Positions 2,649 through 28,430 of a stretch of 64,000 bases of DNA are shown in pieces; within the stretch, counting starts at the first letter, position 1; every line of letters starts with the position of its first letter. The notes under the pieces are model-generated. The model did not search any database, had not been told where the DNA came from, and worked only from the letters and a program-made list of their open reading frames with translations. The DNA lies in the IMG/VR virus record IMGVR_UViG_3300024999_000097, positions 1 through 64,000 of that record; one strand, given 5' to 3'. The stretch comes from a virus. Both the position numbers and the translations under genes were made by a program.

Positions 2649-2667
2649 AAAGTATGAGGTGGTAATC

Positions 2668-3216
2668 ATAAATAAACTACAAGGTTTTAGAACGTTAAGG
2701 GAATTAGGAATTCCTTCTACTCCATGGGCTTTTATGGATGAAAATACAGAGCTTAGTGAAGGCATTCTGTGGACAGTTAGAACAGCAGTTGAAGTTGGAG
2801 ATGATTATAACTTACCAAGAGCTGTTGGTGTTAATGCAGAAGTAGCTAAGCAAAAGTACGAAGAATTTAGTAAAGAAGGTTTAAAGGTTATTTGTTACCC
2901 ATACTTTGTAGCTGAAATTAGTGGTGTAGTGATTATTGAACCAGATAAGATTGTTATAGAGTATGTTAACAGTGATCTTTGGGATTTAGTAACGAAAGGA
3001 AAAGTAGATGGGAGACAAATACTTCCTATAAATACTTGGTGTGAATATAGATCTATAGTGAGATATGCCAAATGGGTGTATAGTAAGATGAAAGGGTATA
3101 TTGAAAATAATTTAAGCATTTATTTAGAGTGGTCTTGGGCTTCTAATTGTGATATTAACAAAAACAAAACAGGTAAGCCTTATTTAGTATTCTATGAGTG
3201 CAGAGTAATAAAATAG
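2668..3216 (+). CDS. Hypothetical protein, about 182 aa, probable ATA start
   Basis: Not recognised. The frame is open from an ATG at 2617, but that codon has no Shine-Dalgarno site and lies inside the previous gene. A strong GAGGTGG (2656-2662) instead sits 5 nt before an in-frame ATA (2668), and there is no ATG, GTG or TTG between that site and the conserved-looking body. I therefore place the start at ATA 2668, as in several other genes here. The body is a mixed alpha/beta domain with many aromatic residues (YLEWSWASNCD near the end). If the ATG is used, the protein is 17 aa longer. Confidence 0.55.
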   Translation: MNKLQGFRTLRELGIPSTPWAFMDENTELSEGILWTVRTAVEVGDDYNLPRAVGVNAEVAKQKYEEFSKEGLKVICYPYFVAEISGVVIIEPDKIVIEYVNSDLWDLVTKGKVDGRQILPINTWCEYRSIVRYAKWVYSKMKGYIENNLSIYLEWSWASNCDINKNKTGKPYLVFYECRVIK

Positions 3217-3230
3217 GAGGTAAATAAATT

Positions 3231-3389
3231 ATGTTTGTTATGGTAGTAGCTTCTATATGGGTAAGTGTATCTTTAAGTATTTCAGTTGGCCTATATTACA
3301 CACATAATTCTAATTGTTTATGGGCATTTATTGTACCAGCTTTAATTAGTATTAGTTCCGGAACATCTGGAGGTAAAAAATGCGAATAG
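3231..3389 (+). CDS. Small membrane protein, 52 aa
   Basis: Two hydrophobic stretches (MFVMVVASIWVSVSLSISV and LWAFIVPALISIS) indicate a protein with one or two membrane spans. TAGGAGG lies upstream of the ATG. Its end overlaps the nrdG start by 10 nt, so it is cotranslated with that gene. Function unknown. Confidence 0.55.
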   Translation: MFVMVVASIWVSVSLSISVGLYYTHNSNCLWAFIVPALISISSGTSGGKKCE

Positions 3390-3865
3390 CTAATATAGTT
3401 CAACAAAGTGTAGTTGATGGCCCTGGTTTAAGGTTTACAATATTCTTTCAAGGATGTAAGCATAACTGTAAAGGTTGTCACAACCCTTCAACACATGATT
3501 TAAACGGTGGTTATGATGTTGGTATTACTTCATTAGCAAACATAATAAGAATGCACCTTGATAACAATCCGTTAATCCAAGGAATAACATATTCAGGTGG
3601 AGAACCTCTACTACAAACTCCCTCACTATTTGAGTTAACTAAGTTGATAAAACAGTTTAAGCCAGATGTTAACTTTATGTTGTATACCGGATTCCATATG
3701 CGTGATATAAGTTCAAAATTAGCTAAAGAAATGGACTACGTCATAGATGGTAAATATGTTGAAAGGCTCAGAGATATCGGACTAAAATTTAGAGGCAGCT
3801 CTAACCAACGCATATATCAGAACATAAATGGTGAATTTATAGATATAACAGATAGTGAGGTGTAA
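3380..3865 (+). CDS. nrdG: Anaerobic ribonucleotide reductase activating protein NrdG
   Basis: Radical-SAM enzyme that makes the glycyl radical on the class III ribonucleotide reductase NrdD, allowing dNTP synthesis without oxygen. The CxxxCxxC iron-sulphur motif is visible (GCKHNCKGCHN, residues 25-35), preceded by the usual VDGPGLRFTIFFQGC lead-in, and YSGGEPL follows. Length, 161 aa, is normal for NrdG. NrdD itself is not in this window; it may lie further upstream or be supplied by the host. The gene implies replication in an anaerobic cell. It overlaps the membrane peptide upstream and is followed closely by a small hypothetical gene. Confidence 0.93.
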   Translation: MRIANIVQQSVVDGPGLRFTIFFQGCKHNCKGCHNPSTHDLNGGYDVGITSLANIIRMHLDNNPLIQGITYSGGEPLLQTPSLFELTKLIKQFKPDVNFMLYTGFHMRDISSKLAKEMDYVIDGKYVERLRDIGLKFRGSSNQRIYQNINGEFIDITDSEV

Positions 3866-7648: not shown

Positions 7649-8013
7649 TGCCTAAGATATTAGTAATAAAAGCAGATGGTGCTATTGAGGCCGTTGAATC
7701 AGGAGCAGCTGGTACAGAACAATTTTCCAAGTCCCTAAATAGTGCAGTTGAAGGCTGGATTGAAATTGTAAGACCAATAACAGGGATACTTGAACAAGAT
7801 CATGTAATGGTAGTAAATGAAGAAGGGCATTGTAAGAATTTACCGTTTAATTTAATAGGTACAAGAATTTATGGTTATGGTTTTATAGTTGGTAACATAG
7901 TGATTTGTAAAGAAGTTATGATTGATGAAGGTTATGATTTATATCCTTTTGATGATGATGAAGTTGAAACAGTAATTAATAGATTAAAACTTAAATTAGC
8001 AACAAACTTTTAG
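7648..8013 (+). CDS. DUF3846 domain protein
   Basis: The segment VMVVNEEGHCKNLPFNLIGT followed by RIYGYGFIVGNIVI is the hallmark of DUF3846 proteins, small phage and mobile-element proteins of unknown function. The usual order is present: an N-terminal beta segment, then EEGhxxxLPxN, then a hydrophobic GNxxI strand. Length, 121 aa, is typical. The stop codon is followed immediately by a terminator that separates it from the terminase. Confidence 0.75.
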   Translation: MPKILVIKADGAIEAVESGAAGTEQFSKSLNSAVEGWIEIVRPITGILEQDHVMVVNEEGHCKNLPFNLIGTRIYGYGFIVGNIVICKEVMIDEGYDLYPFDDDEVETVINRLKLKLATNF

Positions 8014-8034
8014 GCTCCCTAAATGGGAGCTTTT
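8014..8034 (+). terminator. Rho-independent terminator before terL
   Basis: GCTCCC (8014-8019), loop TAAAT, GGGAGC (8025-8030), TTTT. It separates the small early-type genes from the packaging and structural genes, and shows that the ATG at 8023, inside the hairpin, is not a real start. Confidence 0.85.
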
Positions 8035-8055
8035 CCTATTTGTGAGGTGTGTTTA

Positions 8056-9351
8056 ATGTCAGTTGAAACTGTAAAGAATATAGTTAAAGCTGTATTATTT
8101 TTTGTAGCTTTTTCGTTAAAGCAAAAGAAAATACTGACTTGGTGGACGGATAAAAGTCCATATAAAGATTATAATGGTATTATAGCAGATGGAGCTATTA
8201 GGGCAGGTAAAACAGTACCTATGGCTTTATCTTTTGTATTTTGGGCTATGGATATATTCCATGGCAGAAACTTTGCTATGTGTGGTAAATCAATTGGTTC
8301 ATTTCATAGAAATGTTTGGTCTTGGTTGAAACCAGCTTTGATAGTTAGAGGGTATAAAATAAAAGAAGTAAGAGCTGGAGAAGATAAACATATCTTAATA
8401 AGCTATAAAGGTAATTGGAATAAGTTCTATATATTTGGTGGTAAAGATGAAGGTAGTCAAGCACTTATTCAAGGTATTACATTAGCCGGTATACTATTTG
8501 ATGAAGTTGCTTTAATGCCAGAAAGCTTTGTAAATCAGGGTACCAGTAGATGTTCTGTTGAAGGTGCTAAGTACTGGTTTAACTGTAACCCTGATGCACC
8601 GTTACACTGGTTCAAAGTTAATTGGATTGAGAAAGCAACAGAAAAGAAGTTATACCATTTACACTTTATGATGGACGATAACCCAAGTTTAAGTGATGCA
8701 GTTAAAGCTAAATATCGGTCAATGTATTTTGGTGTATTCTTCAAACGCTTTATCCTAGGATTGTGGGTTATTGCCGAAGGTGCTATTTATGATATGTGGT
8801 CAGATGATGAAAACTTGTTTGATGATGAAACAATACCACAAGGTTTGAAATATATTGCTAGACGTTCTATAGCTATTGACTATGGTACTACAAATCCTAT
8901 GGTATTCTTAGATATATGGGATGATGGTAAGACTTGTTGGCAAGTAAATGAATATTATTGGGATAGTAAAGAAAAAGGAAGACAAAAAACAGATAGTGAA
9001 TATGCTGATGATTTAATGGCTTTTATTGGTGAAGATATGCCGGATGATATTATTCTTGACCCTTCAGCTGCAAGCTTTAAAGCCGAGTTAAGACAAAGAG
9101 GTTTAAGGGTTAAAGATGCTGATAATGATGTAAGAGATGGAATTAGTATTGTATCAACAATGCTAGGACTTAGATTGTATAAAGTACATAAGCGTTGTAA
9201 GATGACACAATATGAAGTAACTTCTTATGTTTGGGATGATAAAGCAAGGGAACGTGGTGAAGAAAAACCACTTAAAATAAAAGACCATACTTGTGATGCA
9301 AAACGTTATTTCTGTAAGACTAAAATAAAACCATGGAGGCTAACAGCTTAA
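8056..9351 (+). CDS. terL: Terminase large subunit
   Basis: ATP-driven DNA packaging motor and nuclease. Walker A reads GAIRAGKT near residue 44 and Walker B is GILFDEVAL. The C-terminal RNase H-like nuclease shows D residues in IDYGTTNPM, in ILDPSAASFK and in HTCDAKRYF. About 431 aa, the PBSX/Terminase_6 size. ATG 8056 is chosen because GTGAGGTG lies just upstream and the longer frame begins in a terminator. No small-terminase gene is recognised beside it; it may be unrecognisable or elsewhere. Confidence 0.93.
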   Translation: MSVETVKNIVKAVLFFVAFSLKQKKILTWWTDKSPYKDYNGIIADGAIRAGKTVPMALSFVFWAMDIFHGRNFAMCGKSIGSFHRNVWSWLKPALIVRGYKIKEVRAGEDKHILISYKGNWNKFYIFGGKDEGSQALIQGITLAGILFDEVALMPESFVNQGTSRCSVEGAKYWFNCNPDAPLHWFKVNWIEKATEKKLYHLHFMMDDNPSLSDAVKAKYRSMYFGVFFKRFILGLWVIAEGAIYDMWSDDENLFDDETIPQGLKYIARRSIAIDYGTTNPMVFLDIWDDGKTCWQVNEYYWDSKEKGRQKTDSEYADDLMAFIGEDMPDDIILDPSAASFKAELRQRGLRVKDADNDVRDGISIVSTMLGLRLYKVHKRCKMTQYEVTSYVWDDKARERGEEKPLKIKDHTCDAKRYFCKTKIKPWRLTA

Positions 9352-9364
9352 GGTGGTATAAAAT

Positions 9365-10948
9365 ATGAGTAAAAAATCAAATGCAAAAAGGAAAATACAA
9401 ACACAAATACAGGAAGTTCCTCAACAACCTAGAAGCTTTACAACAGATGCTTTTCAGAATCTATTAGCAAGAATGGGTGTAGGGACTCCTAGTATGATTG
9501 AATCTACTGCTTATCCATTAACAAGGTTATCACAAAACTATACACTAATGAACAGCTTGTATAGAAGTCATTGGATAGTACGACGGATTATTGATGTAAT
9601 ACCAGAAGATATGTGTAAAAACTGGTATCAAGTATCTAGTCAATTAGAACCAGACCATATTGAACGCATTAAGAAACTTGAAAGAAAAACAAGCGTAAAA
9701 CCTAAGATTCTTGAAACTTTAAAGTGGGCAAGGCTTTATGGTGGTGCTGCTGCTATAATGATGATTGATGGTCATGAAGGAATACTTGATCAACCACTTA
9801 ATATTGATATGGTAATGCCTGGTAGTTTCAAAGGCCTTCTAGTAGTTGACAGATGGTCAGGATTGAACCCAAGTACAGGTTTGGTAATAGATATTAATGA
9901 TCCTGAGTTCGGCCTCCCAGAAACGTACCAAGTAACAAATAACGCTACTCATGAAACAGTAAATATACATCATAGTAGGGTACTTCGGTTTATTGGTCGT
10001 GATCTTCCATTCTGGGAAAAGCAATCCGAAGTTTATTGGGGTGCTTCTGAAATTGAGCATATTTATGATGAATTAAGGAAGCGTGATAATACATCATGGA
10101 ACATTGCAAATTTAGTATTTAGGGCTAATCTTAATGTTTTACAAATGGAAGGCCTTGACCAAGTATTTGCAACTGGTAATGATAAGGTGAAGCAAGACAT
10201 TTATAACACTGTACAAGCTCAAAACTGGCTTATGAATAATTTTAGTATGTATATTCTGGGTGAAAAAGATAAGTTTGATACTAAATCCTATACATTTGCT
10301 GGTTTATCTGATATATATGAAAACTTTATGTGTGATATATCTGGTGCTGCTGAGATACCGGTAACAAAACTCTTTGGTCGTTCACCTGCTGGTATGAATG
10401 CAACGGGTGAATCGGATATGCAAAACTATTATGATGTAATTGAGGAACGCCAGGAGTCGTATTTAAGGCCAGTATTTGATAAATTGCTTCCGGTACTATT
10501 TATGTCAGAATTAGGAGCTATTCCTGATGATTTAGATTATAAGTTTAGTCCTATACGTAGGGCCTCGGATGAAGAAAAAGCTGAGTTAGGTTCTAAAATA
10601 ACAGGTTCAGTTATTGAAGTATTTAATGCTGGTTTAATCAGTCAACAAATAGCTTTAAAAGAACTTCGTCAGTTAGAAGAAATCACCGATATGTGGTCTA
10701 ATATTACTGATGATGATATAGCTAATGCTGATGCTAATATTCAACAGCCTATGGGTGAAGAGGGAATACCCGGTATGGGCGAAGGGATGGAAGGATTATT
10801 TGGCAATAATAAGCCGGATAATAAGCAACCGGAAAACGATAGCTCAAACATGTTACAACAAATGCAGTACCAACAACACAGAAACAAAGTACAGCTTGAT
10901 GATGTTTTAAATAAAATGGCGTTTGACGAAAATAGTTTACAAAATTAA
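9365..10948 (+). CDS. Portal protein, DUF1073 type
   Basis: Forms the dodecameric portal at the capsid vertex through which DNA passes. The region from RSHWIVRRIIDVIPEDMCKN through ARLYGGAAAIMMIDG, the later LFGRSPAGMNATGESDMQNY and the FSPIRRASDEEKAEL helix are typical of the DUF1073/Gp6-like portal family. 527 aa is a normal length. The C-terminal tail is rich in Q, G and M and probably disordered. It follows terL by 13 nt, and its stop codon lies inside the promoter of the next gene. Confidence 0.92.
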   Translation: MSKKSNAKRKIQTQIQEVPQQPRSFTTDAFQNLLARMGVGTPSMIESTAYPLTRLSQNYTLMNSLYRSHWIVRRIIDVIPEDMCKNWYQVSSQLEPDHIERIKKLERKTSVKPKILETLKWARLYGGAAAIMMIDGHEGILDQPLNIDMVMPGSFKGLLVVDRWSGLNPSTGLVIDINDPEFGLPETYQVTNNATHETVNIHHSRVLRFIGRDLPFWEKQSEVYWGASEIEHIYDELRKRDNTSWNIANLVFRANLNVLQMEGLDQVFATGNDKVKQDIYNTVQAQNWLMNNFSMYILGEKDKFDTKSYTFAGLSDIYENFMCDISGAAEIPVTKLFGRSPAGMNATGESDMQNYYDVIEERQESYLRPVFDKLLPVLFMSELGAIPDDLDYKFSPIRRASDEEKAELGSKITGSVIEVFNAGLISQQIALKELRQLEEITDMWSNITDDDIANADANIQQPMGEEGIPGMGEGMEGLFGNNKPDNKQPENDSSNMLQQMQYQQHRNKVQLDDVLNKMAFDENSLQN

Positions 10949-10964
10949 CTTTATATGTTATAAT
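10936..10964 (+). promoter_or_regulatory. Promoter inside the end of the portal gene
   Basis: TTTACA (10936-10941), 17 nt, TATAAT (10959-10964). It would start a transcript near 10971, so the ATG at 10963 cannot be the start of the next gene. Confidence 0.75.
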
Positions 10965-10992
10965 GTTATTTATCAGTAAAGAGGTGGTTCAA

Positions 10993-12663
10993 ATAGATAA
11001 GAAACAAATACTAATACCACTTGTAAATGTTTTATCTGGTTTAGCTGCTGTTATAGAACAGGAAAGCAAGAAACCTATGACACATGATGGTGGTGAAGGT
11101 AGTGGCAATCATGGTCATAAAGGTAGGCCAGGTAAAAGAGGCGGAAGTGGTAAAGGTGGGGGAAGTAGTATAAGTGAACCAGAATTAAGGAAATCAATAG
11201 TTGAAGCATTATTGGGACATGAAACTGCTGGATACCCAGAATCTAAAAAATCAACTTTAGAAGAACGTACTACTACACACCTTATAAATTCTTACAAAGA
11301 AATGATTGAAAAGCATGGAGCAAGTGAGAAAGAAGAAGTTTCAAAAGTTGGCGAACTGATAAAAGAATTTAAAGATGAAAGTAAACCTGAAACTAAAAGT
11401 CCAAGTAGTTCTGGTAAAGCACCAAAGTTGCCTAAATCTTTTATGACACTCTGGGGTAAAGCTGGTAAACTTACTGAAATAGGTAGTAGATATGTTGATG
11501 GTGCAGAAGATTTAACAAGGCATGGTTTAGCTATTCATATAGCTTTAGGTGCAAAAGATAAGGATAAAGATGGTAAGTTCTTTGATGAACTAACTGAAAT
11601 GGTTCCAACTCCTCATGAAGCTCCTAAATCTTTCGATAGTTTTAAAGATATGCATCATCTTGAATTAGCTTATAGAGCCAAAGTAATGGGTGTTAAAGAT
11701 TGGGATAAGTTAGCTATAAGATCTTTAAAAGCTAAACTGCCAGAAGCTTACAGTGTAACTCCAGTTGATTCACATGTTGTTAAAACTGTTAAACCGGTTG
11801 AAAAACCAGTTAAGGTTGAAGGTAAAAAAGTTCCTGCTCCTACTAAAGAGCAACCAATACCTAAAAGTAACCGCCAAATTATTCGTGGTCAAGATAGTTT
11901 TATGAATCGTTATGTACCGCCAGATAAAACAGTAAAAAGTTATTATAATGAGGTAGGAGAAAACATTGAATTTCATGCTAAGAAAAATAATTTAACTGTT
12001 GAAGAATACAAATCTAAGCTTAATGAAAAATGCCAGGATTTAATTGATAAGTGTGATCTTAAAATGAGGATTGATTCAAAAGTATTATTGAATTTTATTC
12101 TTCATAATGGTGGTAGATTTAAGAATCAATTTGAAACTGGTACATCCGGTGGTTATTTAGGAAAAGGATTTGATAATCCAAGAGCTAAATGTGAAACAAG
12201 TTATTGGGATATACATAAAGAAGCTGATGGTGCTACTAGACCAATATATGGTTATATGTATTCAGATGAAGCTTTTGATGGTAAAGGCCCAGGTTGGGTA
12301 GATGGTTATGGTGACCTATCAATAACATTTAAACCAGATGTTAAGAAAAGGACTACTGTTGGCACAGGTGATACATTAAATAATCATTTTAGTAAAGGTG
12401 ATACAGATTTTATTGTTAAACCAGTAACTGAAATTGATCATACTATTATTGGCAGAGGAAAATTTGGTTCACTTGCTGATCCTTTAAAAGCTAAAAGCTT
12501 ATATGATTTAAAGGATGAATATATTGAAGCTCAAATATTTGGCCCAACAACTGTTCATGATATAGCTCATGTAAGTTTTGCAGGTGGTATACCAAATAGT
12601 GAAATAACTAAAGAATTAGACAAATTAGGTATACCTTGGCATAAAGGTAAAAAGGGGGAATAA
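10993..12663 (+). CDS. Head-associated protein with GSGNHGHKGRPG motif and DUF3626-like C-terminus; probable ATA start
   Basis: A long protein between portal and MuF-like gene. Residues 30-60 contain GEGSGNHGHKGRPGKRGGSG, a linker motif common in phage head proteins of this genomic position. A charged, helical middle follows. The C-terminal part (NGGRFKNQFETGTSGGYLGK, then RPIYGYMYSDEAFDG and the GTGDTLNNH segment) resembles DUF3626, which has been likened to ADP-ribosyltransferase folds; I hold that loosely. The only in-frame ATG (10963) lies in a -10 box. GAGG (10981-10984) is 8 nt before ATA 10993, the preferred start. Possibly injected with DNA to act in the host. Confidence 0.65.
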   Translation: MDKKQILIPLVNVLSGLAAVIEQESKKPMTHDGGEGSGNHGHKGRPGKRGGSGKGGGSSISEPELRKSIVEALLGHETAGYPESKKSTLEERTTTHLINSYKEMIEKHGASEKEEVSKVGELIKEFKDESKPETKSPSSSGKAPKLPKSFMTLWGKAGKLTEIGSRYVDGAEDLTRHGLAIHIALGAKDKDKDGKFFDELTEMVPTPHEAPKSFDSFKDMHHLELAYRAKVMGVKDWDKLAIRSLKAKLPEAYSVTPVDSHVVKTVKPVEKPVKVEGKKVPAPTKEQPIPKSNRQIIRGQDSFMNRYVPPDKTVKSYYNEVGENIEFHAKKNNLTVEEYKSKLNEKCQDLIDKCDLKMRIDSKVLLNFILHNGGRFKNQFETGTSGGYLGKGFDNPRAKCETSYWDIHKEADGATRPIYGYMYSDEAFDGKGPGWVDGYGDLSITFKPDVKKRTTVGTGDTLNNHFSKGDTDFIVKPVTEIDHTIIGRGKFGSLADPLKAKSLYDLKDEYIEAQIFGPTTVHDIAHVSFAGGIPNSEITKELDKLGIPWHKGKKGE

Positions 12664-12666
12664 ATA

Positions 12667-12915
12667 GTGGAAGGTAAAATAATAGCTACAAGGAGTGCAA
12701 GCGGTTATTTGATTGATGTAGGTAATAATCAAGGTAGGGTGTTTGATATTGAAAAGAAGATAATCTTCACTCCTTTTAATATTAATTCTATCCTTGCTCG
12801 TGGTTACTGGGAAGATTATCCTTCTGAAGGTGAAGAACCTATGGAAGTTGCCAGTTTGATTAAAGGAGCTAAGGAAATGGATTTGGAAGGGAATTTAACC
12901 GGTAAAACTTTTTGA
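12667..12915 (+). CDS. Hypothetical protein, 82 aa
   Basis: GTG start with AAAGGGGGA upstream. The sequence suggests a small beta barrel in the first half (GKIIATRSASGYLIDVGNNQ, GRVFDIEKKIIFTPFNIN), followed by an acidic tail. No family recognised. Lies between two head-associated genes and is followed by a promoter-terminator pair. Confidence 0.5.
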   Translation: MEGKIIATRSASGYLIDVGNNQGRVFDIEKKIIFTPFNINSILARGYWEDYPSEGEEPMEVASLIKGAKEMDLEGNLTGKTF

Positions 12916-12934
12916 TTAAAATTTAAAATAACTG

Positions 12935-12963
12935 TTTACAACTTTTAGGTTTTATGATATAAT
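12935..12963 (+). promoter_or_regulatory. Promoter of short transcript
   Basis: TTTACA (12935-12940), 17 nt, TATAAT (12958-12963) with TG extension. A terminator begins only about 30 nt after the expected start point. Confidence 0.8.
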
Positions 12964-12969
12964 ATTACT

Positions 12970-13019
12970 ATGTGTTATCTTAGTAAATAAACATTAGACT
13001 CCCATTTGGGGGTCTTTTT
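12970..13019 (+). ncRNA. Short terminated RNA or attenuator
   Basis: The expected transcript from the promoter at 12935 would run about 50 nt to a good terminator: AGACTCCC (12996-13003), ATTT, GGGGGTCT (13008-13015), TTTTT. There is no coding frame. It is either a small RNA or a leader that limits transcription of the MuF-like gene. Confidence 0.55.
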
Positions 13020-13042
13020 GTTATTATAAGTGGTGATAAGAA

Positions 13043-13873
13043 ATGCCTAAAGAACCTTGGGAACCAAAAAGAAAGATTGAACATGGTTATTTTAGTTCAT
13101 TAAAACAGATTGTAGATTATTTAGGTAACTTAATCATAAATGAATCAAACCCTTATGTTATTGCAGCTCTTATAAAAGTAGCTTTTAATAATCCAGTATT
13201 TAAGCGTTATTCTGAATCAGCAGCTAGAAAAATGGTAACACATTTGATGGTTGAAAATGCTAAGTCTTGGAGGGAAGCTGCTAGGAAGGGTAGTAAAGGA
13301 AGTATTATATATAAAGCTTTAAGGCAAGAACTAAAAGGTCCAATTGGTGGCGCAGTACATAGTCAAATAATGCGTAATGCAGAAATAATTAGTACTTTAC
13401 CTTTAAACATTTCACAAAAAGTAACTGATTATATCAGTGAAGAAACTTTTAAGGGTAAAAGAGCTTCAGAAATAGCAGAAGAAATAAAAAGAATGTTTCC
13501 TGAAAGAACTAAAGCCAGTGCTAAGTTAATTGCTAGAACTGAAGTGAGTAAAACCTCAACAGCTTTAACTAGGGCACGTGCTGAAAGTATAGGCTTGAAT
13601 TGGTACGTATGGAGAACAAGTGAAGATGAAAGAGTGAGGTCAAGTCATAGGCATATGGATAGAGTATTGATTAAATGGCTTAATCCTCCTCAGCCGGAGA
13701 AGCTTATAGGTGAAAAACATCCGCCAGCACCATATCATGCAGGTGAAATATATAATTGTAGATGTTATCCGGCACCTTTAACTGATATAGACCGAGTACA
13801 ATGGCCCCACAAAGTATTTTATAATGGGTCTATTCAAATGATGACGAGAAGTAAATTTGTAAGAATTATGTAA
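13043..13873 (+). CDS. MuF/SPP1 gp7-like minor head protein
   Basis: Minor head (head morphogenesis) protein that sits near the portal and is often ejected with DNA. The conserved C-terminal module is clear: ARTEVSKTSTALTRARAESI, then WYVWRTSEDERVRSSHRHMD and the metal-like YHAGEIYNCRCYPAPL. Length, 276 aa, is normal. The N-terminal two thirds are helical. GTGGTGA provides the ribosome site before ATG 13043. It follows the portal region as in Mu-type and SPP1-type head gene orders. Confidence 0.9.
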   Translation: MPKEPWEPKRKIEHGYFSSLKQIVDYLGNLIINESNPYVIAALIKVAFNNPVFKRYSESAARKMVTHLMVENAKSWREAARKGSKGSIIYKALRQELKGPIGGAVHSQIMRNAEIISTLPLNISQKVTDYISEETFKGKRASEIAEEIKRMFPERTKASAKLIARTEVSKTSTALTRARAESIGLNWYVWRTSEDERVRSSHRHMDRVLIKWLNPPQPEKLIGEKHPPAPYHAGEIYNCRCYPAPLTDIDRVQWPHKVFYNGSIQMMTRSKFVRIM

Positions 13874-13882
13874 GGAAAGAAG

Positions 13883-15970
13883 GTGGTTAAAATACCTGGT
13901 ATAAATACTATAAGCCCGAATACAGGAAGACTTATTCAAGAAGATAACGATGTGGTAAACTTAGCTGATATGTCCGAGCTGATAACTAAAACTTTAGTTG
14001 TAGCAGGAATAGCCTCTATGGATGGTTCATCTTCTTTTATTGTTGACGATACAAAGAACTTTGAAGCTGGTTTGTTTGTTGGTAAACTAATTAAAGTAAC
14101 TATTGATGGAGTAGAATATATCCGTAAAATAGTAAGTTGTGATGGTCAATTAATACAAATTACTCACACGAGGGAAACTGTAGCTGCTTCTGTGATAATA
14201 GGTGAACCAGAAGGCCCACAGTTAACTATAACAAGTGAATTTCCTGGTAGCGAAGGAAATAATTGTTCAGTTATTATTGTAAATGGTGCAGAACCAAATA
14301 CACTTTTAGCTGCTGTTATAGACCCTGAAACTAATCTTTTAACTGTTACATTGGCTACTGATGGAGAAGGTTTACCCGATAATACTGTAAATACTGGAAT
14401 GGCTGTAGCTACTGCTATTGATATATTACCTGAATTTATTGCTGAAATGACAGGTGCTGGTGGTATAGTAACAGAAATAGCCGAAGCTATTCCGCTTACT
14501 GGTGGTATTGATCCAATAGTAATAACCGAAGGAACTCCATATGAAATTTTACTTACAGATCCAAATCAAATAGATGTTAAAGTAGAAGGAATGGGTAGTG
14601 TAGATACTATTGCTGTAACTGATCCGGATACATTAACAGCTAATGAGCTTGGGTTATTAAGAGGTATACTTAAACAAATTAAAACTGGCATAGTGAATAA
14701 AGATTCAAATGGTGATGAAATATTTACTAATACAAGACCTGGTAGTATGAAATTAATGGATAGTAATGGTGGGCAGGCAACTATTACAGGCGGTAAATTA
14801 GATGTCAATGCAAATGTCTCTGTTGATAATTTAACTATACCTAATAATTTGTTAGCGATTCCAAAAACTGAATTAAAACCATTAGCTCTTTTAGAGAGCC
14901 ACCCTAATGACCCTGTACCTAATAGCATTGACCCAGATGGTAATGTTTATGGTAGAGCAAGTAATGGATTAATATTTAATAGTACAGATAGTTGCGCTAC
15001 TTTTAATTACTCCACTTTTGACTTTACTATTTTTGCACTTGGAACACCATACTATGTCATAAAAACTAATAAAAAATATATTGTCTTTTTGCGGGATGCA
15101 AACAACAATAAGGGCGGTATTGTTACAAGTGATTCTTTTGATAGTGGCTATGTCCTAGCGGTAACAAACGTTAGTTCATATCCAGATGATATTGCTATTA
15201 ACTACTATCATGGTGCTATGCCTAATGGTGATTCTATTATTTTATCCGGCGAATATGGTATGGTTAAGAATGTTGTAAAAAACTTGTGGGCATCATTTGA
15301 TAGTGGGGTAACATGGCAATCTGTACTACAAACACCAATTGTAGATATTGCTGTTAATAACCACTTTCATCATAGTATTTATGACCCATATATGGGCAGA
15401 ATTTGGGCTACTTGTGGTGATGGAGTAAACGCAATATTGAGGTATTCTGATGATTTAGGTTTAACATGGGGAACTGTGTCATTCGAAGGAACAAACCCAC
15501 AACCAACAATACTAATGGCATTTCCTGGTAGAATTGTTTACGGTGCGGATGCAGGAAATTACCCTGTTTCTTTGTGGAATATTCCGAGAGATACGGATGC
15601 TACGGTAAAAGGTATGGAAACATTTACTTCAGAACTGGCGTATACAATGATAACTAATAAATTTTGTTATGATTATTACGGACAACCCCCTGTGGCACAA
15701 TCAGGAATTGAAGCATATGCTGCTTTTCCTGCTTATGATGGTTCAAAGAAATCACTTATTGTTGCTACAGGTGATGGAGGTAATAGTTGGAATATTGTTT
15801 ATCAGTATAAGTATGAAAGAATTGTAGGTGGTCAAGGGTTTACCAGAGGTTTAGTTGGTCCAGATAAAAATGGTTTTATATTTTCCTATATTTTAGCATT
15901 AGCACCATCTAATAATACTGTAAGATCGTGTATATTAAAATTGCCAAAAGTAGAGTGGGTTTATAAGTAG
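13883..15970 (+). CDS. Fibre or decoration protein with BNR-type propeller
   Basis: 695-aa protein. The N-terminal third is beta-rich, with a TGRLIQEDNDVVNLADM segment and a repetitive extracellular-looking middle. The C-terminal half has Asp-box (BNR) signatures SxDxGxTW: ASFDSGVTWQSV, YSDDLGLTWGTV and TGDGGNSWNI, which mark sialidase-like beta-propellers. It probably binds or degrades a surface carbohydrate, perhaps as a head fibre, since it lies among head genes. GTG 13883 has AAGGA upstream; ATA 13892 after AAGGTGG is an alternative start matching the pattern seen in other genes. Confidence 0.7.
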   Translation: MVKIPGINTISPNTGRLIQEDNDVVNLADMSELITKTLVVAGIASMDGSSSFIVDDTKNFEAGLFVGKLIKVTIDGVEYIRKIVSCDGQLIQITHTRETVAASVIIGEPEGPQLTITSEFPGSEGNNCSVIIVNGAEPNTLLAAVIDPETNLLTVTLATDGEGLPDNTVNTGMAVATAIDILPEFIAEMTGAGGIVTEIAEAIPLTGGIDPIVITEGTPYEILLTDPNQIDVKVEGMGSVDTIAVTDPDTLTANELGLLRGILKQIKTGIVNKDSNGDEIFTNTRPGSMKLMDSNGGQATITGGKLDVNANVSVDNLTIPNNLLAIPKTELKPLALLESHPNDPVPNSIDPDGNVYGRASNGLIFNSTDSCATFNYSTFDFTIFALGTPYYVIKTNKKYIVFLRDANNNKGGIVTSDSFDSGYVLAVTNVSSYPDDIAINYYHGAMPNGDSIILSGEYGMVKNVVKNLWASFDSGVTWQSVLQTPIVDIAVNNHFHHSIYDPYMGRIWATCGDGVNAILRYSDDLGLTWGTVSFEGTNPQPTILMAFPGRIVYGADAGNYPVSLWNIPRDTDATVKGMETFTSELAYTMITNKFCYDYYGQPPVAQSGIEAYAAFPAYDGSKKSLIVATGDGGNSWNIVYQYKYERIVGGQGFTRGLVGPDKNGFIFSYILALAPSNNTVRSCILKLPKVEWVYK

Positions 15971-16014
15971 ATTTACTATCTAGTTAATGGTATTAAAAAA
16001 AAGGAGCTAATATT

Positions 16015-16344: not shown

Positions 16345-17796
16345 TTGAGTTATAGCCCGATTAGGCCGACCAGGAAAGAGTTTAATGACAATCTTGGAAA
16401 TATTATATCGATAAAACAACCTCCGCCACCTCTTGTCCCAGTGAAAAGCGGTGGTGTAATAGATGCCTCCGTTGATACACAAAACATATTTAATGGTGCT
16501 GTTAATAAAAGAATTTATATTCCAGATGGCATTTACTATATTGCTTCCTCAATAGACCCTAGTGGGTTTAAATATATTGAAGGTTCATGTTCAAATAAAG
16601 TTATTTTTATAACAGACCAGGATATATCTATTTTTGAAAGCCCAGATACAACAGATAACAATTACCTTTTTATAAAAGGTATAACATTAAAACAAATAGG
16701 GGTGTCAACCAAACCAGCTATAAAGTTAGCAGGTAAAATGGCAAGTCCTTATACTGGTTTTAGTTATAGTTTGTTAGAGGATGTTATGGTAGATGGTTTT
16801 CAAGATGGTTTTGAGGGGTATGGTTTTTGGAGTACGCTTTTTAATCGTATCAGGTTTAGAAATTTGGCTAGGCACCATATTAGGCTTGGTTCTAAGACCA
16901 ATAACGTTATTGTGAAAAATTCAGTTCTTCAAAATGGAGTAAATGGAATTGTGGCCAATAACGCTATTGGTGGTGATGGTACACAAATAACATCCATTCA
17001 TTGTGATAATCTTGACTGTGAAAGCATGAGTGGATATTTATTCGATTTATACGCCGTTGAAACATTTACAGCTTCGAAACTTCACACGGAAGGAATTGCT
17101 CAAATAGCTAATATTGATTCCGTGGCAAATTTTGTGCTGGAAAAATCCAGGTTAAACGCTGTTACTAGGGTATTAACAGCTAGAAAATCCAATGCCTCCG
17201 TCTTATTTTCTGGTATACCTAAAATACTAAACAATCAAATCACTATTAACACTACAGGTAATATTGGGCTTGTTCAATTAAGTACGTCTGAGATTCCAGC
17301 AAAACTTAAATGGGAGGGTAATGACGTACAAGTTACTAATGGTGCTAATGTTTTTGTTTATAATAATGATTTTAACGCAACAACCCTATCGAACCATAAA
17401 AGAATAGGAGACACAATATCAACAGCAGCTAGCAGGTTTAGGTATAGCGAGGACATAATAACTCACGTTTTCGACCTTTCAAGAAGTCGTGAAAAATACG
17501 CTAAGTTAATGACTGCTGAATTAGAATGTGTAGGTGCTGGCACCGCTGCATCCGCTACAACAGTAAGTGTAAAAGATGCAACGGGTACAGCTATTTTCCA
17601 AGGAACCATTCAAGCGCAAGCATACGCCACAGGTGACAAGATTAATCTAGGCAGGACATTTACTGCTAGTGAGTATTGGCGAGGAGTGGTTACCGAGGGA
17701 ACAACTTGGACTGTCAGTCATTCAAATACTACAGGCGTTGATGCCTTGACGTTTAAAGTAAACTTCCTTTTGCCGAAATTTGGTGACGAAGCATAA
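16345..17796 (+). CDS. Beta-helix (pectate-lyase-fold) tailspike-like protein
   Basis: TTG start behind GGGAGG. The central region has repeating short beta coils (NNVIVKNSVLQNGVNGIVAN, TSIHCDNLDCESMSGYLFD), typical of right-handed beta-helices that form receptor-binding or polysaccharide-depolymerising spikes. The C-terminal part (VGAGTAASATTVSVKDATGT) looks like a separate beta sandwich for trimer closing. 483 aa. It follows its adaptor-like partner without a gap. Substrate cannot be predicted. Confidence 0.75.
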   Translation: MSYSPIRPTRKEFNDNLGNIISIKQPPPPLVPVKSGGVIDASVDTQNIFNGAVNKRIYIPDGIYYIASSIDPSGFKYIEGSCSNKVIFITDQDISIFESPDTTDNNYLFIKGITLKQIGVSTKPAIKLAGKMASPYTGFSYSLLEDVMVDGFQDGFEGYGFWSTLFNRIRFRNLARHHIRLGSKTNNVIVKNSVLQNGVNGIVANNAIGGDGTQITSIHCDNLDCESMSGYLFDLYAVETFTASKLHTEGIAQIANIDSVANFVLEKSRLNAVTRVLTARKSNASVLFSGIPKILNNQITINTTGNIGLVQLSTSEIPAKLKWEGNDVQVTNGANVFVYNNDFNATTLSNHKRIGDTISTAASRFRYSEDIITHVFDLSRSREKYAKLMTAELECVGAGTAASATTVSVKDATGTAIFQGTIQAQAYATGDKINLGRTFTASEYWRGVVTEGTTWTVSHSNTTGVDALTFKVNFLLPKFGDEA

Positions 17797-17855
17797 AAGT
17801 AGGTGATAAAAATATCCTCTAACCCTAAGAGAAATTGAAAGAAGGTGGTGATAAT

Positions 17856-19148
17856 GTGAAGGCGTTTTATGGTTCAAGATTTAGCCCGAATATGACGAAA
17901 ACTCCAGAAGGGTTTTTAGTTTGTCATAATGTTCCTATAACAAGGACGGGTTGGCTAGAATATTTAGGGCAAGAGCTGGGGTTAAAAGATAAATACGACC
18001 AGGTAATTAAAGTATATCGAAGTGACAAAGAAGTGTTTAATTCAGCTACTATGGCTTCTTTTGAAGGTAAGTCTGTTACAGATGGGCATCCTTCAAATGA
18101 TGTTAGAGCTGATAATTATATGATGTATGAAAAGGGTCAAGTAACAAATGTAAGGCCAAGTCAAGATGAACCAGATTTACTTCTTGCAGATTTAATAATA
18201 AAAGATCCGTTACTTATTTCTGAAGTTGAACATGGTAAACGTGAAGTATCTTGTGGGTATGATTGTAATTATGTTCCTATTCAAGGTGAAGAAGGAATAT
18301 ATAATCAGGTTGCTATACGAGGTAATCATGTAGCTGTTGTACCTGTTGGTAGAGCTGGTTCAAGAGTAACAATAAAGGACGAAAGTCCATTATATAAAAA
18401 AAGAACAAATGAAAGGGGAAAGAAAATGCCTATACTGGACAAAAAAAGTATAATTGGAAGAATGCTTTCCGCATTTGCAAGGGACGCTGAGCCAGAAGAG
18501 ATGGCTGAAGCTGCTAAAATGTTTAAGGAAGAGGAAGGGGAAGCAAGAGATAGTATGTTTCAAAATGCTGAGCAAAACCAAACTGCTGCTCCACAAGCCG
18601 GTGGCAACAACGCTGTAGCTGAATTAACTAAACAAGTACAAGCTCTAACAGAGGTTGTAGGTCAGTTACTTCAAGCTGAAAAAAGTGAACCGAATCATAA
18701 TCCGGATGCTTTGGAATCTTTAGCTGCTGAGCTTGAGGGTCAAAAACCTACTCAGGATTTTGGTAATGAAGAATCAGTAACAGTTTCACCTGAACAGATG
18801 AATCAAGATTCTGAAATTAGTGCCGGCCCTGTGTCTGCTGCTAATACTCGTCCTGACAATCCCATTCCGGGTGCAGACAGAAATACCATTTTAAATGCCA
18901 TTAAAACTATGAAGCCAATTATTGCTTCTATTCCCGATGCCGGCGAAAGAAAGAAAGCTTCTGATGCTTTGGCTAAGACCTTTAGGGATCAGATGGCTGT
19001 TGCTCCAACAAATGTCAATGGTTATGCAATGGTTCAAAATGCTATTAGTGCTAATACTAAAGCAAAAGATAAGCAGGTTGTTGACCCTGTTTATGAAGGT
19101 AAAGAATGGGCCAAGAAATTTAATCCGCATTATAAGGAGGGTAAATAA
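17856..19148 (+). CDS. DUF2213 prohead protease-scaffold fusion
   Basis: N-terminal about 190 residues match DUF2213, thought to be the capsid maturation protease: GWLEYLGQELGL, ATMASFEGKSVTDGHPSNDV, then REVSCGYDCNYVP and NHVAVVPVGRAG. The C-terminal half is acidic, Q-rich and helical (AVAELTKQVQALTEVVGQLL), as in scaffolding proteins. GTG 17856 after GAAGGTGG is the likely start. An in-frame ATG at 18426 with AAAGGGGA before it could give the scaffold alone. It lies directly before the decoration and capsid genes, as expected. Confidence 0.85.
   Translation: MKAFYGSRFSPNMTKTPEGFLVCHNVPITRTGWLEYLGQELGLKDKYDQVIKVYRSDKEVFNSATMASFEGKSVTDGHPSNDVRADNYMMYEKGQVTNVRPSQDEPDLLLADLIIKDPLLISEVEHGKREVSCGYDCNYVPIQGEEGIYNQVAIRGNHVAVVPVGRAGSRVTIKDESPLYKKRTNERGKKMPILDKKSIIGRMLSAFARDAEPEEMAEAAKMFKEEEGEARDSMFQNAEQNQTAAPQAGGNNAVAELTKQVQALTEVVGQLLQAEKSEPNHNPDALESLAAELEGQKPTQDFGNEESVTVSPEQMNQDSEISAGPVSAANTRPDNPIPGADRNTILNAIKTMKPIIASIPDAGERKKASDALAKTFRDQMAVAPTNVNGYAMVQNAISANTKAKDKQVVDPVYEGKEWAKKFNPHYKEGK
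18426..19148 (+). CDS. Probable internal-start scaffold product
   Basis: ATG 18426 (MPILDKKSIIGRMLSAFARD) is preceded by GAAAGGGGAAAG at usable spacing and falls exactly at the junction between the DUF2213 domain and the acidic helical part. This is the same layout as nested protease/scaffold genes such as lambda C/Nu3. If used, it would give a 240-aa free scaffolding protein. Confidence 0.5.
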   Translation: MPILDKKSIIGRMLSAFARDAEPEEMAEAAKMFKEEEGEARDSMFQNAEQNQTAAPQAGGNNAVAELTKQVQALTEVVGQLLQAEKSEPNHNPDALESLAAELEGQKPTQDFGNEESVTVSPEQMNQDSEISAGPVSAANTRPDNPIPGADRNTILNAIKTMKPIIASIPDAGERKKASDALAKTFRDQMAVAPTNVNGYAMVQNAISANTKAKDKQVVDPVYEGKEWAKKFNPHYKEGK

Positions 19149-19150
19149 AC

Positions 19151-19663
19151 ATGCCAGGTCAAGCTATTGGGATAAGTATGAAATACGGTTACCCCGGTTC
19201 ATTTGCCAGAAATGGTGATTGCATTATCAGAAATAGAATTGTTAAAACAACTGCCCCGGCTTTTGGTGACCCTGTAGTTTTGAACACTGATGGAACAGTT
19301 ACGAAGTTCGGTGCAGCAGGTACAGCAGCTTTATTTGATGGTGTTGCTGTTCGTGAAGTAATGCAGAATGCTTCTTATGTTCCGGCTTTGGGTACATATA
19401 CCGTTGATAGTCCGTGTGATGTACTTCAAAGAGGTTCAATTTCTGTTATTTGTAACGTTGGGACACCTACCGCAGGCGGTGGAGTTTATGTAAGAGTTAC
19501 CGCTAATGCAGCTATTCCTGCTGGTGTTATCGGTGGTTTTGAAGCAAGGTCTGACACTGATGATGATAAGTGTATCAAGCTTACCAATTGTAAGTGGACG
19601 AATGGTTTAATCGACAGTAATAAGGTTGCTGAGTTAACCATTCTTGAACGGTTAAATCCCTAA
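19151..19663 (+). CDS. Head decoration protein, DUF2190-like
   Basis: 170-aa beta-rich protein starting 2 nt after the scaffold gene with AAGGAGG upstream. It has the order seen in DUF2190/cement proteins: a G-rich N-terminus (GQAIGISMKYGYPGSFARNG), then PAFGDPVVLNTDGTVTKFG, later GVAVREV and a PTAGGGVYVRV segment. It lies immediately before the major capsid gene, the normal place for a decoration or stabilising protein. Confidence 0.75.
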   Translation: MPGQAIGISMKYGYPGSFARNGDCIIRNRIVKTTAPAFGDPVVLNTDGTVTKFGAAGTAALFDGVAVREVMQNASYVPALGTYTVDSPCDVLQRGSISVICNVGTPTAGGGVYVRVTANAAIPAGVIGGFEARSDTDDDKCIKLTNCKWTNGLIDSNKVAELTILERLNP

Positions 19664-19688
19664 AATAAGATAAAGGAGGTATAGGAAA

Positions 19689-20720
19689 TTGAGTGGTATA
19701 AAGACATATCCAATTAAAGATGTAAGAACTTTAGATAGCTTGGTTGCCAGTAATGGTGGCTTTTCAATGTTAACTACGGATGCTGCTACTGCTGGTGGTA
19801 TGGCATTCTTAATGGGTGAACTTGAGAAACGGGATCCAAAAGTAAGAGAGCCATTAACTTCCGTTACTTGGGCCAGAGATATTGTAGCTAAGACTGGCGG
19901 TGGATGGGTAGAATTTACTTCCACTATGAATGTAAGCTATGCAACAGCAGGCCCAAATGCTAATGGTATTATGGGTGGTGAAACTACCAATATTCCCGTA
20001 ATGCAAGCTGATATTGGTAAAGATATTTACAAAGTGTTCACTTGGGGCAATATTCTTAAAATTCCGTTTGTTGATCAAGCAAAGCTGCAAAATATTGGTC
20101 GAAGCCTTGATGAAATCTTGGATAAAGGTATTCGTCTTAACTATAACAAAACTGTCGATCAAAACGTTTACACTGGTTTTACTGAAGCTGGTACAACCGG
20201 TATTATTAATGATGCTAACGTTACTGCTGCTTCGGTAGCTAATGGTGCTGCTGGCACTTCGGCGTGGAATACAAAAACGCCTGATGAAATTTTGAATGAT
20301 ATTAACCAATTAATTATTGATGGTTGGGCTGCTTCTGAGTATGACCTTTCCGGTATGCCGAATCACATTTTAATTCCGCCTTCTCAGTATGCCTATATTG
20401 TAGGAACTAAAGTTTCTACTGCCGGTAATGTAAGTATCCTGGAGTTCTTACTTAACAATAATATCGGTAAAAACCAAGGTGTTGAACTTGTAATTGCTCC
20501 TTCTCGGTGGTGTATCGGTGCCGGTACTGGTGGTACAGATCGTATGGTTGCTTATGTGAATGATGAGGACAAGCTTTATTTTGACCTTACCGTTCCTTGT
20601 TCCAGGGTTATGACCCAGCCGGTTGTTAGTGATATGGCCTATTTGACTGCTTATGCAGCTCAGATTGGTGTTATTAAGTTCCTTTACTTACAACCACCCA
20701 GATATGGTGATGGTATTTAA
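19689..20720 (+). CDS. Major capsid protein, DUF2184 type
   Basis: 343 aa, the main shell protein. TTG start (19689) after AAAGGAGG. Features of the DUF2184 capsid family are visible: an N-terminal RTLDSLVASNGG region without a long delta domain, GGWVEFTSTMNVSYA, VFTWGNILKIPFVDQAKLQN, and a C-terminal FDLTVPCSRVMTQPVVSDM then VIKFLYLQPPRYGDGI. Codon use is more GC-tolerant than its neighbours, as expected for an abundant protein. A hairpin follows. Confidence 0.9.
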   Translation: MSGIKTYPIKDVRTLDSLVASNGGFSMLTTDAATAGGMAFLMGELEKRDPKVREPLTSVTWARDIVAKTGGGWVEFTSTMNVSYATAGPNANGIMGGETTNIPVMQADIGKDIYKVFTWGNILKIPFVDQAKLQNIGRSLDEILDKGIRLNYNKTVDQNVYTGFTEAGTTGIINDANVTAASVANGAAGTSAWNTKTPDEILNDINQLIIDGWAASEYDLSGMPNHILIPPSQYAYIVGTKVSTAGNVSILEFLLNNNIGKNQGVELVIAPSRWCIGAGTGGTDRMVAYVNDEDKLYFDLTVPCSRVMTQPVVSDMAYLTAYAAQIGVIKFLYLQPPRYGDGI

Positions 20721-26388: not shown

Positions 26389-26447
26389 TCTTACTAATGA
26401 AAAAGCGTTAGTTTGGTAACAGTGTTAAATAAAAGGGGTATAATTTT

Positions 26448-26876
26448 ATGAATAAACGTATATTATACAAAACTTTTGAGTTTGAAGATAGAAAGTGGCG
26501 TATAGGTAAATTTGATGCAATGACTGGTTCATATATAGCTTATAAGCTTATGGCCGAGGCTGTTCCATTCGGTTTAGCTGCAAAGTTAGATATTCCAGTT
26601 AATAAAGATGCTAAAACAATGTCCAAAACTGATTTTATCGATCTGCAAAAAGACTGCTTACTGGTTTGCTCTGAGTTTCTTCCTGCAGGACCTATTCCGG
26701 TGTTAAATGAAAATGGAACGTTTGGTGTTGAAGGTCTTGAAAATGATGCAAAAACAGTATTAGCTTTAACGGTTCAAGCTTTAGCTTTTAATGTATCTGA
26801 TTTTTTTACCGAAAGCCTCTTGACTTCATTAGTAGAGGCAATGCAGGGTATATTCCGGCTAGATGCGAAAATATAA
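26448..26876 (+). CDS. Tail assembly chaperone, short form
   Basis: 142 aa. Lies between tube and tape measure genes, the fixed place of tail assembly chaperones. KTFEFEDRKWRIGKFDAMTG followed by helical segments suits the family. The gene is the zero-frame product; a slippery run at 26801-26807 permits a -1 shift into an open frame that has no start of its own (see the fusion entry). AAAGGGG precedes the ATG. Confidence 0.75.
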   Translation: MNKRILYKTFEFEDRKWRIGKFDAMTGSYIAYKLMAEAVPFGLAAKLDIPVNKDAKTMSKTDFIDLQKDCLLVCSEFLPAGPIPVLNENGTFGVEGLENDAKTVLALTVQALAFNVSDFFTESLLTSLVEAMQGIFRLDAKI

Positions 26877-27058
26877 ATGAATTTTTGTTCACTCCGGTAA
26901 TGCTTGGAATGTGGAAACAAAAAGAGCTTTGGGACGGAACTTATACTTTTAAAGATTTACTTGATATACACGAATTACTTGAGGTACAACATGAAAATAA
27001 ACGGAGAGCTTATGAATATGAATTAGCTATTTCAAAAGGAGGTGGACAAAATTCTTAA
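26448..27058 (+). CDS. Tail assembly chaperone, -1 frameshift fusion
   Basis: The -1 frame is open from just before 26801 to a TAA at 27056-27058. A slip at T-TTT-TTT (26801-26807) would join 120 residues of the short form to 83 new residues, including NEFLFTPVMLGMWKQKELWD and YTFKDLLDIHELLEVQHENK. That frame has no plausible start codon, and without frameshifting 26877-27050 would be an unexplained gap. This mirrors P2 E/E' and lambda G/GT, where the long form binds the tape measure protein. The fusion would be about 203 aa. Confidence 0.8.
26801..26807 (+). other. Slippery heptamer T-TTT-TTT
   Basis: In the zero frame the codons are GAT-TTT-TTT-ACC. Seven T residues allow both tRNAs to slip back one base and keep pairing. 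Phage P2 uses T-TTT-TTG at the same step of tail assembly. Confidence 0.75.
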
Positions 27059-28430
27059 TGTAATCAAAGAATATCTAATAAGTTTAGGTTATAGAGTTGA
27101 TCAACATTCTTTCAATACAGCAATGAATTCCATAACACAACTTAGCAGATCAATAAATAGTTTTGTTGGTGCAGCTATAGGAAGGTTCACCTCTTTAGGT
27201 TTAGCTATGTCAGGCTTTTCTTCAGCTTTTCTTGCTGTTTTATATCAGCTTACCATTGGTGTAGCAAATGCGGATTTACAAAATGAATTATTCGCCCGTA
27301 GAATGTGGATGGCTAAGGATGCTGCCCTTGCTTATAAGAATTCACTTAATGCTTTAGGTGTTACATTACAAGATTTATATTTAAGCCCAGAGCTAATGGA
27401 TAAATTTATCCAGCTTAGAAATCAGTCTTATTATATGCAAACACCAGATAGTTTTGGTGATGCAATGAAAGGTCTTAGGTCAATTACGTTTGAGTTTCAA
27501 CGTTTTAAACTTGAAGCTACTTATGCTGTTCAATGGGTTGGTTATTATCTGACTAAATATTTATCAGAACCAATATTCGGTATGAAAGATGGATTGAAAG
27601 GTATCAATGATATTATTGCAGAGAAAATGCCTATTTGGACTAATAAAGTGGCTCAAGTAGTAGCTGGCTTTGTTCGTTTAGGTGATACTGCTTATTTTGC
27701 TGGTAAAGAAATCAAAAAGGTATGGGACAGTTTAAGCGACTCAACAAAGCAAGTTATTAGTATAACAGCAGGATTTTTTGCTTTACTTAAAATGGGTCCT
27801 GTAGGGATCATGATAGCAGGTCTTACCGCTCTTTTGTTGCTTTTAGATGATTATCGAGCATATGCAAAAGACCAAAATAATAGTGCATTTCCTGATTTAT
27901 GGAAATGGGTTGATAATCTTAAGAAGTCTATGAAAGATGATGGAACTTTAAAAGAGTTTAAAGAAAGCTTAGATGGTTTAGCTCAGAGTGTAGTTACTTT
28001 AGGCAAAAACTTTTGGAATTTGATGGATTCATTTGTAAATGGTGATAGTAAAATAAAAGCCATTAAAGGTGCTATTGGTATAATCACTGGAGCTTTTAAT
28101 GAACTTAGTTTTGTTCTTAAAACAATAGCTGATTCTCTGAAAATAATTGATAGTTATATAAATGGCGATGATAAAGCCATTACTAAAAGTAAAAAAGATT
28201 TTATGAGTGGTATACTTGAAAAACCTTCTTGGCTTGATAAGTTTGCAGCAACGCTTTTAGCTCCGTTAGCCTTTGGAAACATTTCTACTAAAGCACCTCG
28301 TGGTGATACAAATATGACCGTAGCCACTACAAACTATATTTATGGGGCTACTAATCCTCAATCGGTTGCAATAGCTGTTGGGCATACATATTCTAAGGCA
28401 ACGAGGCAACTTCAAGGGGTGATAGTATAA
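27051..28430 (+). CDS. Tape measure protein; probable ATT start
   Basis: About 459 aa, which would set a fairly short tail. Hydrophobic segments (FTSLGLAMSGFSSAFLAVLY, ITAGFFALLKMGPVGIMIAG) and long helices fit tape measure proteins, and the position after the chaperone is canonical. GTG 27042 overlaps its own Shine-Dalgarno site (AGGAGG 27037-27042), whereas ATT 27051 lies 8 nt after it, so I place the start there. The long chaperone form ends at 27058, inside this gene. Confidence 0.8.
   Translation: MLNVIKEYLISLGYRVDQHSFNTAMNSITQLSRSINSFVGAAIGRFTSLGLAMSGFSSAFLAVLYQLTIGVANADLQNELFARRMWMAKDAALAYKNSLNALGVTLQDLYLSPELMDKFIQLRNQSYYMQTPDSFGDAMKGLRSITFEFQRFKLEATYAVQWVGYYLTKYLSEPIFGMKDGLKGINDIIAEKMPIWTNKVAQVVAGFVRLGDTAYFAGKEIKKVWDSLSDSTKQVISITAGFFALLKMGPVGIMIAGLTALLLLLDDYRAYAKDQNNSAFPDLWKWVDNLKKSMKDDGTLKEFKESLDGLAQSVVTLGKNFWNLMDSFVNGDSKIKAIKGAIGIITGAFNELSFVLKTIADSLKIIDSYINGDDKAITKSKKDFMSGILEKPSWLDKFAATLLAPLAFGNISTKAPRGDTNMTVATTNYIYGATNPQSVAIAVGHTYSKATRQLQGVIV

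What the first reader, a model, noticed from the sequence alone, without database searches (positions are those of the whole stretch)
2656..27060. Recurring AGG-TGG-N5-ATA/ATT start layout
Seen: at 2656-2670 (GAGGTGG-taatc-ATA), 10981-10995 (GAGGTGG-ttcaa-ATA) and 27037-27053 (GGAGGTGG-acaaa-ATT) the site ends 5 nt after AGG-TGG with an AUH codon at 8 nt from AGG, and no standard start codon fits. At 10963 the only ATG is inside a -10 box. 13883 (AAGGTGG-ttaaa-ATA) and 42305 (AAAGGGTGTCGAAG-ATT) are ambiguous because GTG is also possible. The repeated spacing suggests a systematic use of AUH starts rather than chance.
Basis: partly seen in the sequence, partly recalled or inferred. Interest (0 to 1): 0.85.

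Follow-up and report, generated by a model that had tools for sequence, protein, structure and literature searches.

The report
Phage genes starting with AUA/AUU/AUC
A virus of anaerobic bacteria appears to start about seven of its roughly 91 genes, including its DNA polymerase, at AUA, AUU or AUC instead of the usual AUG/GUG/UUG; comparison with related viruses shows most of these starts are very probably real, and standard gene finders would miss or mis-trim the genes.

Summary
In AGGTGG-N5-ATH a GTG is always in frame three codons upstream, so "no standard start fits" is not strictly true. The motif is not enriched: 4 found, 1.7 expected, 9 of 100 shuffles reach 4. The conclusion survives on better evidence. 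Relatives have ATG exactly where the window has ATA (2668) or ATT (27051). They have TTG, just after an in-frame stop, where the window has ATA (13892). They keep ATA at 10993 in three diverged lineages and ATT at the primase start (42314) in three phages. The swap also runs the other way: relative G001 has ATA, directly after an in-frame stop, where the window has ATG (31822). Two more cases: DNA polymerase III alpha needs a non-NTG start (ATC 47395; PHP domain rises from 68 to 128 bits), as does thymidylate kinase (ATA 61471). So about 7 of ~91 genes use AUH, with ordinary Shine-Dalgarno sites at ordinary spacing. Most likely these are weak, SD-driven starts that lower output of low-copy proteins. 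The kind is known (infC, pcnB, S. aureus ccpN/cvfC1; one AUU predicted in phage TP-J34). I found no report of so many in one phage lineage.

The parts
2668..3216 (+). Gene of unknown function, start ATA 2668, SD GAGGTG at 2656-2661
   Evidence: ATG at the same column in L071/L072, 58-60% identity, where the SD-internal GTG is out of frame
10936..10964 (+). Sigma-70-like promoter TTTACA-17-TATAAT in front of the 10993 gene; contains the ATG at 10963
   Evidence: Consensus scan, 11/12; TATAAT also upstream in G001
10993..12663 (+). Minor-head-like protein with a DUF3626 match, start ATA 10993, SD AAAGAGGTG
   Evidence: ATA at the same column in G001, L009, L010, L011; 4-fold sites 54-66% different between lineages; Pfam DUF3626
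13892..15970 (+). 695-aa-class protein in the head gene block, start ATA 13892, SD AAGGTG
   Evidence: TTG at the same column, preceded by in-frame TAA, in L009/L010/L011; ATA in G001
27051..28430 (+). Tape-measure-like protein, start ATT 27051, SD AAGGAGGTG
   Evidence: ATG at the same column in G001/L069, L015, L017, L018, L056; GTG in L022; PHROG tape measure matches E about 1e-5
42314..43264 (+). DNA primase, probable start ATT 42314, overlapping the previous gene's TGA (AUUGA)
   Evidence: ATT at the same place in G001 18369 and L092, AUUGA overlap in all three; DnaG zinc ribbon and Toprim
47395..50079 (+). DNA polymerase III alpha, start ATC 47395, SD GAAGGTG
   Evidence: No NTG in frame until 47572; PHP domain 68 to 127.6 bits when translated from 47395
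61471..62046 (+). Thymidylate kinase, start ATA 61471, weak SD AGTGAT, overlaps the end of the previous gene
   Evidence: No NTG in frame until 61678, past the P-loop; Thymidylate_kin matched from profile position 1
31822..32412 (+). xxxxx_N-domain phage protein, start ATG here; the G001 orthologue starts with ATA
   Evidence: G001 6575 ATA directly after in-frame TAG

Best explanation
These are real AUH (AUA, AUU, AUC) start codons. The ribosome is placed by an ordinary Shine-Dalgarno site about 8 nt (GGAGG end to codon) upstream, and normal initiator tRNA (anticodon CAU) pairs with the first two bases. The third-base mismatch is tolerated, probably at reduced efficiency and under IF3 discrimination, so output is lowered. 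Many of the affected genes make products needed in few copies (tape measure, minor head protein, primase, DNA polymerase, thymidylate kinase). Shown by comparison: the start position at 2668, 13892 and 27051, and in G001 at 6575 and 45440. Shown by domain completeness: a non-NTG start for 47395 and 61471. Probable by conservation: 10993 and 42314. Inferred, not shown: initiator tRNA decoding, reduced efficiency, dosage tuning.
For: Orthologues carry ATG or TTG exactly at the AUH column (2668, 13892, 27051), and G001 carries ATA at the window's ATG column with an in-frame stop directly before it. In L009/L010/L011 a TAA separates the SD-internal GTG from the TTG start, and in the 2668 and 27051 homologues that GTG is out of frame, so it cannot be the ancestral start there. 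AUA is kept at 10993 in three lineages whose four-fold sites differ at 54-66%, AUU at the primase start in three phages. Polymerase and thymidylate kinase lose essential N-terminal domain parts if started at the first NTG. AUH sites have SDs at aligned spacing 8-9, the mode of NTG genes. S. aureus AUA/AUU starts work at about 10-30% of AUG (PMC13009471).
Against: No protein or ribosome data. The motif is not enriched. At 10993 and 42314 the GTG stays in frame in the relatives examined, so GTG starts are not excluded there. SD strength at AUH sites spans the normal range (-5.6 to -16.3 against median -11.6), so there is no sign of special compensation; 61471 has a weak SD. The major capsid gene uses TTG in both phages, so weak codons need not mean low copy number.
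Confidence: 0.78

Rival explanations
1. Translation starts at the GTG inside the SD (AGGTGG), giving proteins three residues longer.
For: GTG is in frame at 2659, 10984, 13883, 27042 and 42305; at 10993 and 42314 it is in frame in the relatives too.
Against: These GTGs have little or no SD. Homologues have a stop between GTG and the start (13892) or GTG out of frame (2668, 27051). It cannot explain 47395, 61471, G001 6575 or G001 45440, which have no NTG in frame upstream.
Confidence: 0.1
2. Starts depend on translational coupling: ribosomes ending the previous gene reinitiate at a nearby AUH, so codon identity matters little.
For: Several AUH codons overlap or lie within about 20 nt of the upstream stop: 42314 (AUUGA), 61471, 27051, 13892, 2668, 47395, G001 6575.
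Against: 10993 lies 45 nt after the portal stop with its own promoter-like site; G001 45440 lies 55 nt after the previous stop. Most NTG genes have the same close packing.
Confidence: 0.3
3. The host, or a phage factor, has loosened initiation fidelity (altered IF3, initiator tRNA or 16S), so AUH is an ordinary start in this system.
For: About 8% AUH genes; relatives show CTG and possibly ACG starts too; the major capsid gene uses TTG.
Against: No IF3 in the phage, no tRNA found; about 92% of genes still use NTG and 59 of 84 use ATG.
Confidence: 0.15
4. Assembly or sequencing error, or decayed start codons in broken genes.
For: All sequences are metagenome contigs without reads at hand; 47395 and 61471 rest on the window alone.
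Against: The same ATA or ATT recurs in independent contigs, and the frames downstream are intact and conserved (61-68% identity between lineages for 10993).
Confidence: 0.03

Closest known systems
S. aureus / B. subtilis non-canonical starts: infC AUA, ccpN AUA, cvfC1 AUU, citZ AUA (PMC13009471)
   Same: AUA/AUU codons behind SD sites in Firmicutes, conserved among relatives
   Different: Chromosomal genes, mapped by ribosome profiling and reporters with extended SDs; here phage genes, several per genome, inferred by comparison, with SDs in the normal range
infC (AUU in E. coli, AUC in Streptomyces), pcnB AUU, sigR GTC (PMC5472188 and references in PMC13009471)
   Same: Third-base mismatch starts (for infC and pcnB) that limit expression
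   Different: IF3 feedback or regulatory purpose shown there; none shown here
Streptococcus thermophilus phage TP-J34: predicted AUU (orf28) and CUG (orf55) starts (PMC3952083)
   Same: Phage gene predicted to start at AUU, with the sequence re-verified
   Different: One AUU gene of 60, predicted only; here about seven genes with orthologue swaps, conserved AUA and AUU, and domain completeness as evidence

Membership tests
AUH start codons (near-cognate bacterial initiation) | Start position fixed by orthologues carrying NTG at the same column | tested here: met
   2668, 13892, 27051; G001 6575
AUH start codons (near-cognate bacterial initiation) | SD at normal aligned spacing | tested here: met
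   Spacing 8-9 against an NTG mode of 8; SD weak at 61471
AUH start codons (near-cognate bacterial initiation) | No usable NTG start in frame | tested here: met
   Met at 47395, 61471, G001 6575 and G001 45440; at the five SD-GTG sites a GTG remains in frame
AUH start codons (near-cognate bacterial initiation) | Ribosome or N-terminal peptide at the AUH codon | not testable with these tools
   No such data for an uncultured phage
S. aureus-type starts with extended SD | SD stronger or longer than at ordinary starts | tested here: not met
   AUH SD energies -5.6 to -16.3 against NTG median -11.6
IF3-autoregulated or IF3-limited starts (infC, sigR) | Expression changes with IF3 level or fidelity | not testable with these tools
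   No IF3 gene in the phage; host unknown

The most novel reading that the evidence does not exclude
A phage lineage (and perhaps its clostridial hosts) in which start-codon identity is broadly relaxed: SD and spacing define the start, and AUH, CUG and perhaps ACG serve as routine weak starts across structural and replication genes, unseen because gene callers allow only ATG/GTG/TTG.
Probability: 0.25. Interest if true: 0.8.

Novelty: new variant of a known kind. Interest (0 to 1): 0.58.

Why it matters
PHANOTATE by default allows only ATG, GTG and TTG (PMC6853651), and start prediction generally leans on that assumption (PMC5472188), so such genes are truncated or missed. Here the polymerase would lose 59 residues and much of its PHP domain, and the thymidylate kinase its P-loop. 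If weak starts are common in phages of anaerobic Firmicutes, they are a little-recorded layer of dosage control, and the one-base differences between orthologues (AUA/AUG) offer natural experiments on start-codon discrimination.

Tried and rejected
Motif enrichment as the argument: rejected, not enriched. Special spacing: rejected, same mode as NTG genes. De novo scans of all relatives for NTG-less ORFs with an SD: noisy, mixed codons, useful only case by case; the automatic orthologue vote is dominated by off-by-one alignments. Phage IF3: none. Phage tRNAs: none found. Host: only a distant Pelotomaculum MAG match; the other 24 genomes of its family gave no DNA match to window 8001-20000. Relatives in INPHARED: no megablast match for window 1-25000. 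17835 TTG dropped: the real start is GTG 17856. 54672/54678 kept as ATG although it has no SD.

Full report
What was checked. The window is 64.0 kb of a 65.2-kb IMG/VR phage record (33.5% GC); the genes considered here all read forward and no tRNA was found. Counted as a bare motif it is not unusual: 4 seen, 1.7 expected, 9 of 100 shuffles reach 4.

Orthologue test. Translating from the proposed AUH codon and searching IMG/VR relatives gives start-column alignments. 2668 ATA aligns with ATG in L071/L072 (AAGAGGTGAGAT|ATGAACAAACTGCAAGGATTT). 27051 ATT aligns with ATG in G001/L069, L015, L017, L018 and L056, and with GTG in L022. 13892 ATA aligns with TTG in L009, L010 and L011, where an in-frame TAA directly precedes the TTG, so the SD-internal GTG cannot be the start there; G001 has ATA. 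10993 ATA is ATA in G001, L009, L010 and L011 (L070 is the same contig as L009). Protein identity between the three lineages is 61-68% and 54-66% of four-fold sites differ, so the shared AUA is not mere recent ancestry.

Whole-genome comparison with G001 (63.3 kb). Most orthologous genes share an NTG start with an SD in both phages. The exceptions are informative. G001 45440 is ATT two codons after an in-frame TAA (the codon between is also ATT), with no NTG for 36 codons.

The DNA polymerase III alpha frame opens at 47371 and has no NTG until 47572. Started there, its PHP domain scores 68 bits from profile position 59; started at ATC 47395 it scores 127.6 bits over profile 1-162. G001's polymerase starts with ATG two codons further upstream in the alignment. 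The thymidylate kinase frame opens at 61465 and has no NTG until 61678, past the P-loop; ATA 61471 gives a Thymidylate_kin match from profile position 1. Both therefore need a non-NTG start, unless there is a sequence error; neither has an independent contig showing the same codon.

Statistics. By my curated list, 84 genes start with ATG (59), TTG (13) or GTG (12) and seven with AUH, about 8% (the list is hand-made). ATH makes up 8.1% of internal codons. With at most two in-frame codons in the SD spacing range, the chance that the five best-supported window genes (2668, 13892, 27051, 47395, 61471) all show ATH there is about 0.16^5, or 1e-4; this is a post-hoc estimate. AUH sites lie at aligned spacing 8-9 (for 13892 the longest SD match is a different one at 13, its AGGTG match is at 8); NTG genes peak at 8 with a range of 4-13.

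Wider relatives. In the DUF2213 head-protease family, whose N-terminus (xKAFYGSR) is well conserved, relatives start with ATG, GTG or TTG but also CTG (L023, directly after TAA; L089; probably L024), ATA (L068, L027, both with a GTG in frame) and possibly ACG (L020). Near-cognate starts are therefore probably not confined to this phage.

Mechanism. Shown by comparison: start positions and codons. Inferred: initiation by initiator tRNA with a third-base mismatch, lowered efficiency, IF3 sensitivity. S. aureus AUA/AUU starts give about 10-30% of AUG output (PMC13009471), and IF3 represses non-canonical starts (PMC5472188). Most products here are plausibly low-copy (tape measure, minor head protein, primase, polymerase, kinase), which fits dosage lowering. 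However, AUH/NTG turnover, SDs no stronger than elsewhere, and TTG at the major capsid gene leave open that start-codon identity is simply weakly selected in this host. Coupling to the upstream gene may help at the overlapping sites. The host is not known: the nearest bacterial match is a Pelotomaculum MAG (portal 70%), whose infC appears to start with AUU (TGATGGAGGTGAACCAGCT|ATTACAAAG), as infC does in other bacteria.

Known or new. AUH starts are a known kind (infC, pcnB, ccpN, cvfC1), and one AUU phage gene was predicted in TP-J34 (PMC3952083). A phage lineage with about seven such genes supported by orthologue swaps was not found in eight literature searches of an open-licence library, which does not exclude a report elsewhere. 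Filed as a new variant of a known kind.

Noticed in passing
26448-26876 and 26801-27058: Probable -1 programmed frameshift before the tape-measure gene (tail assembly chaperone layout): heptamer T TTT TTT in the right phase at 26801, with the second frame lacking its own start; conserved in G001 at 1786. The frameshift product would end inside the ATT start region of 27051.
   Followed up: partly
19689-20720: The major capsid protein starts with TTG behind a strong SD in both this phage and G001.
   Followed up: partly
L023 15735, L089 13806, L024, L020, L068 7642, L027: Near-cognate starts (CTG, possibly ACG, ATA) in the DUF2213 head-protease gene of relatives.
   Followed up: partly
L062 17103: Candidate ATT start (AAAGGGGGTGATGAAG|ATTCCCCTAGAAGAA) in a gene of another phage, supported by 6 of 6 homologue votes.
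   Followed up: no
44468-44962 and 61471-62046: Two thymidylate-kinase-like genes in one phage.
   Followed up: no
59163-59972: tRNA-methyltransferase-like protein (PHROG 4752, E 3e-12) in a phage with no tRNA found.
   Followed up: no
G001 1397-1861 and 62792-63256: ORFs of the same length with matching start contexts at both ends of the G001 contig, suggesting a terminal redundancy or an assembly overlap of about 1.9 kb.
   Followed up: no
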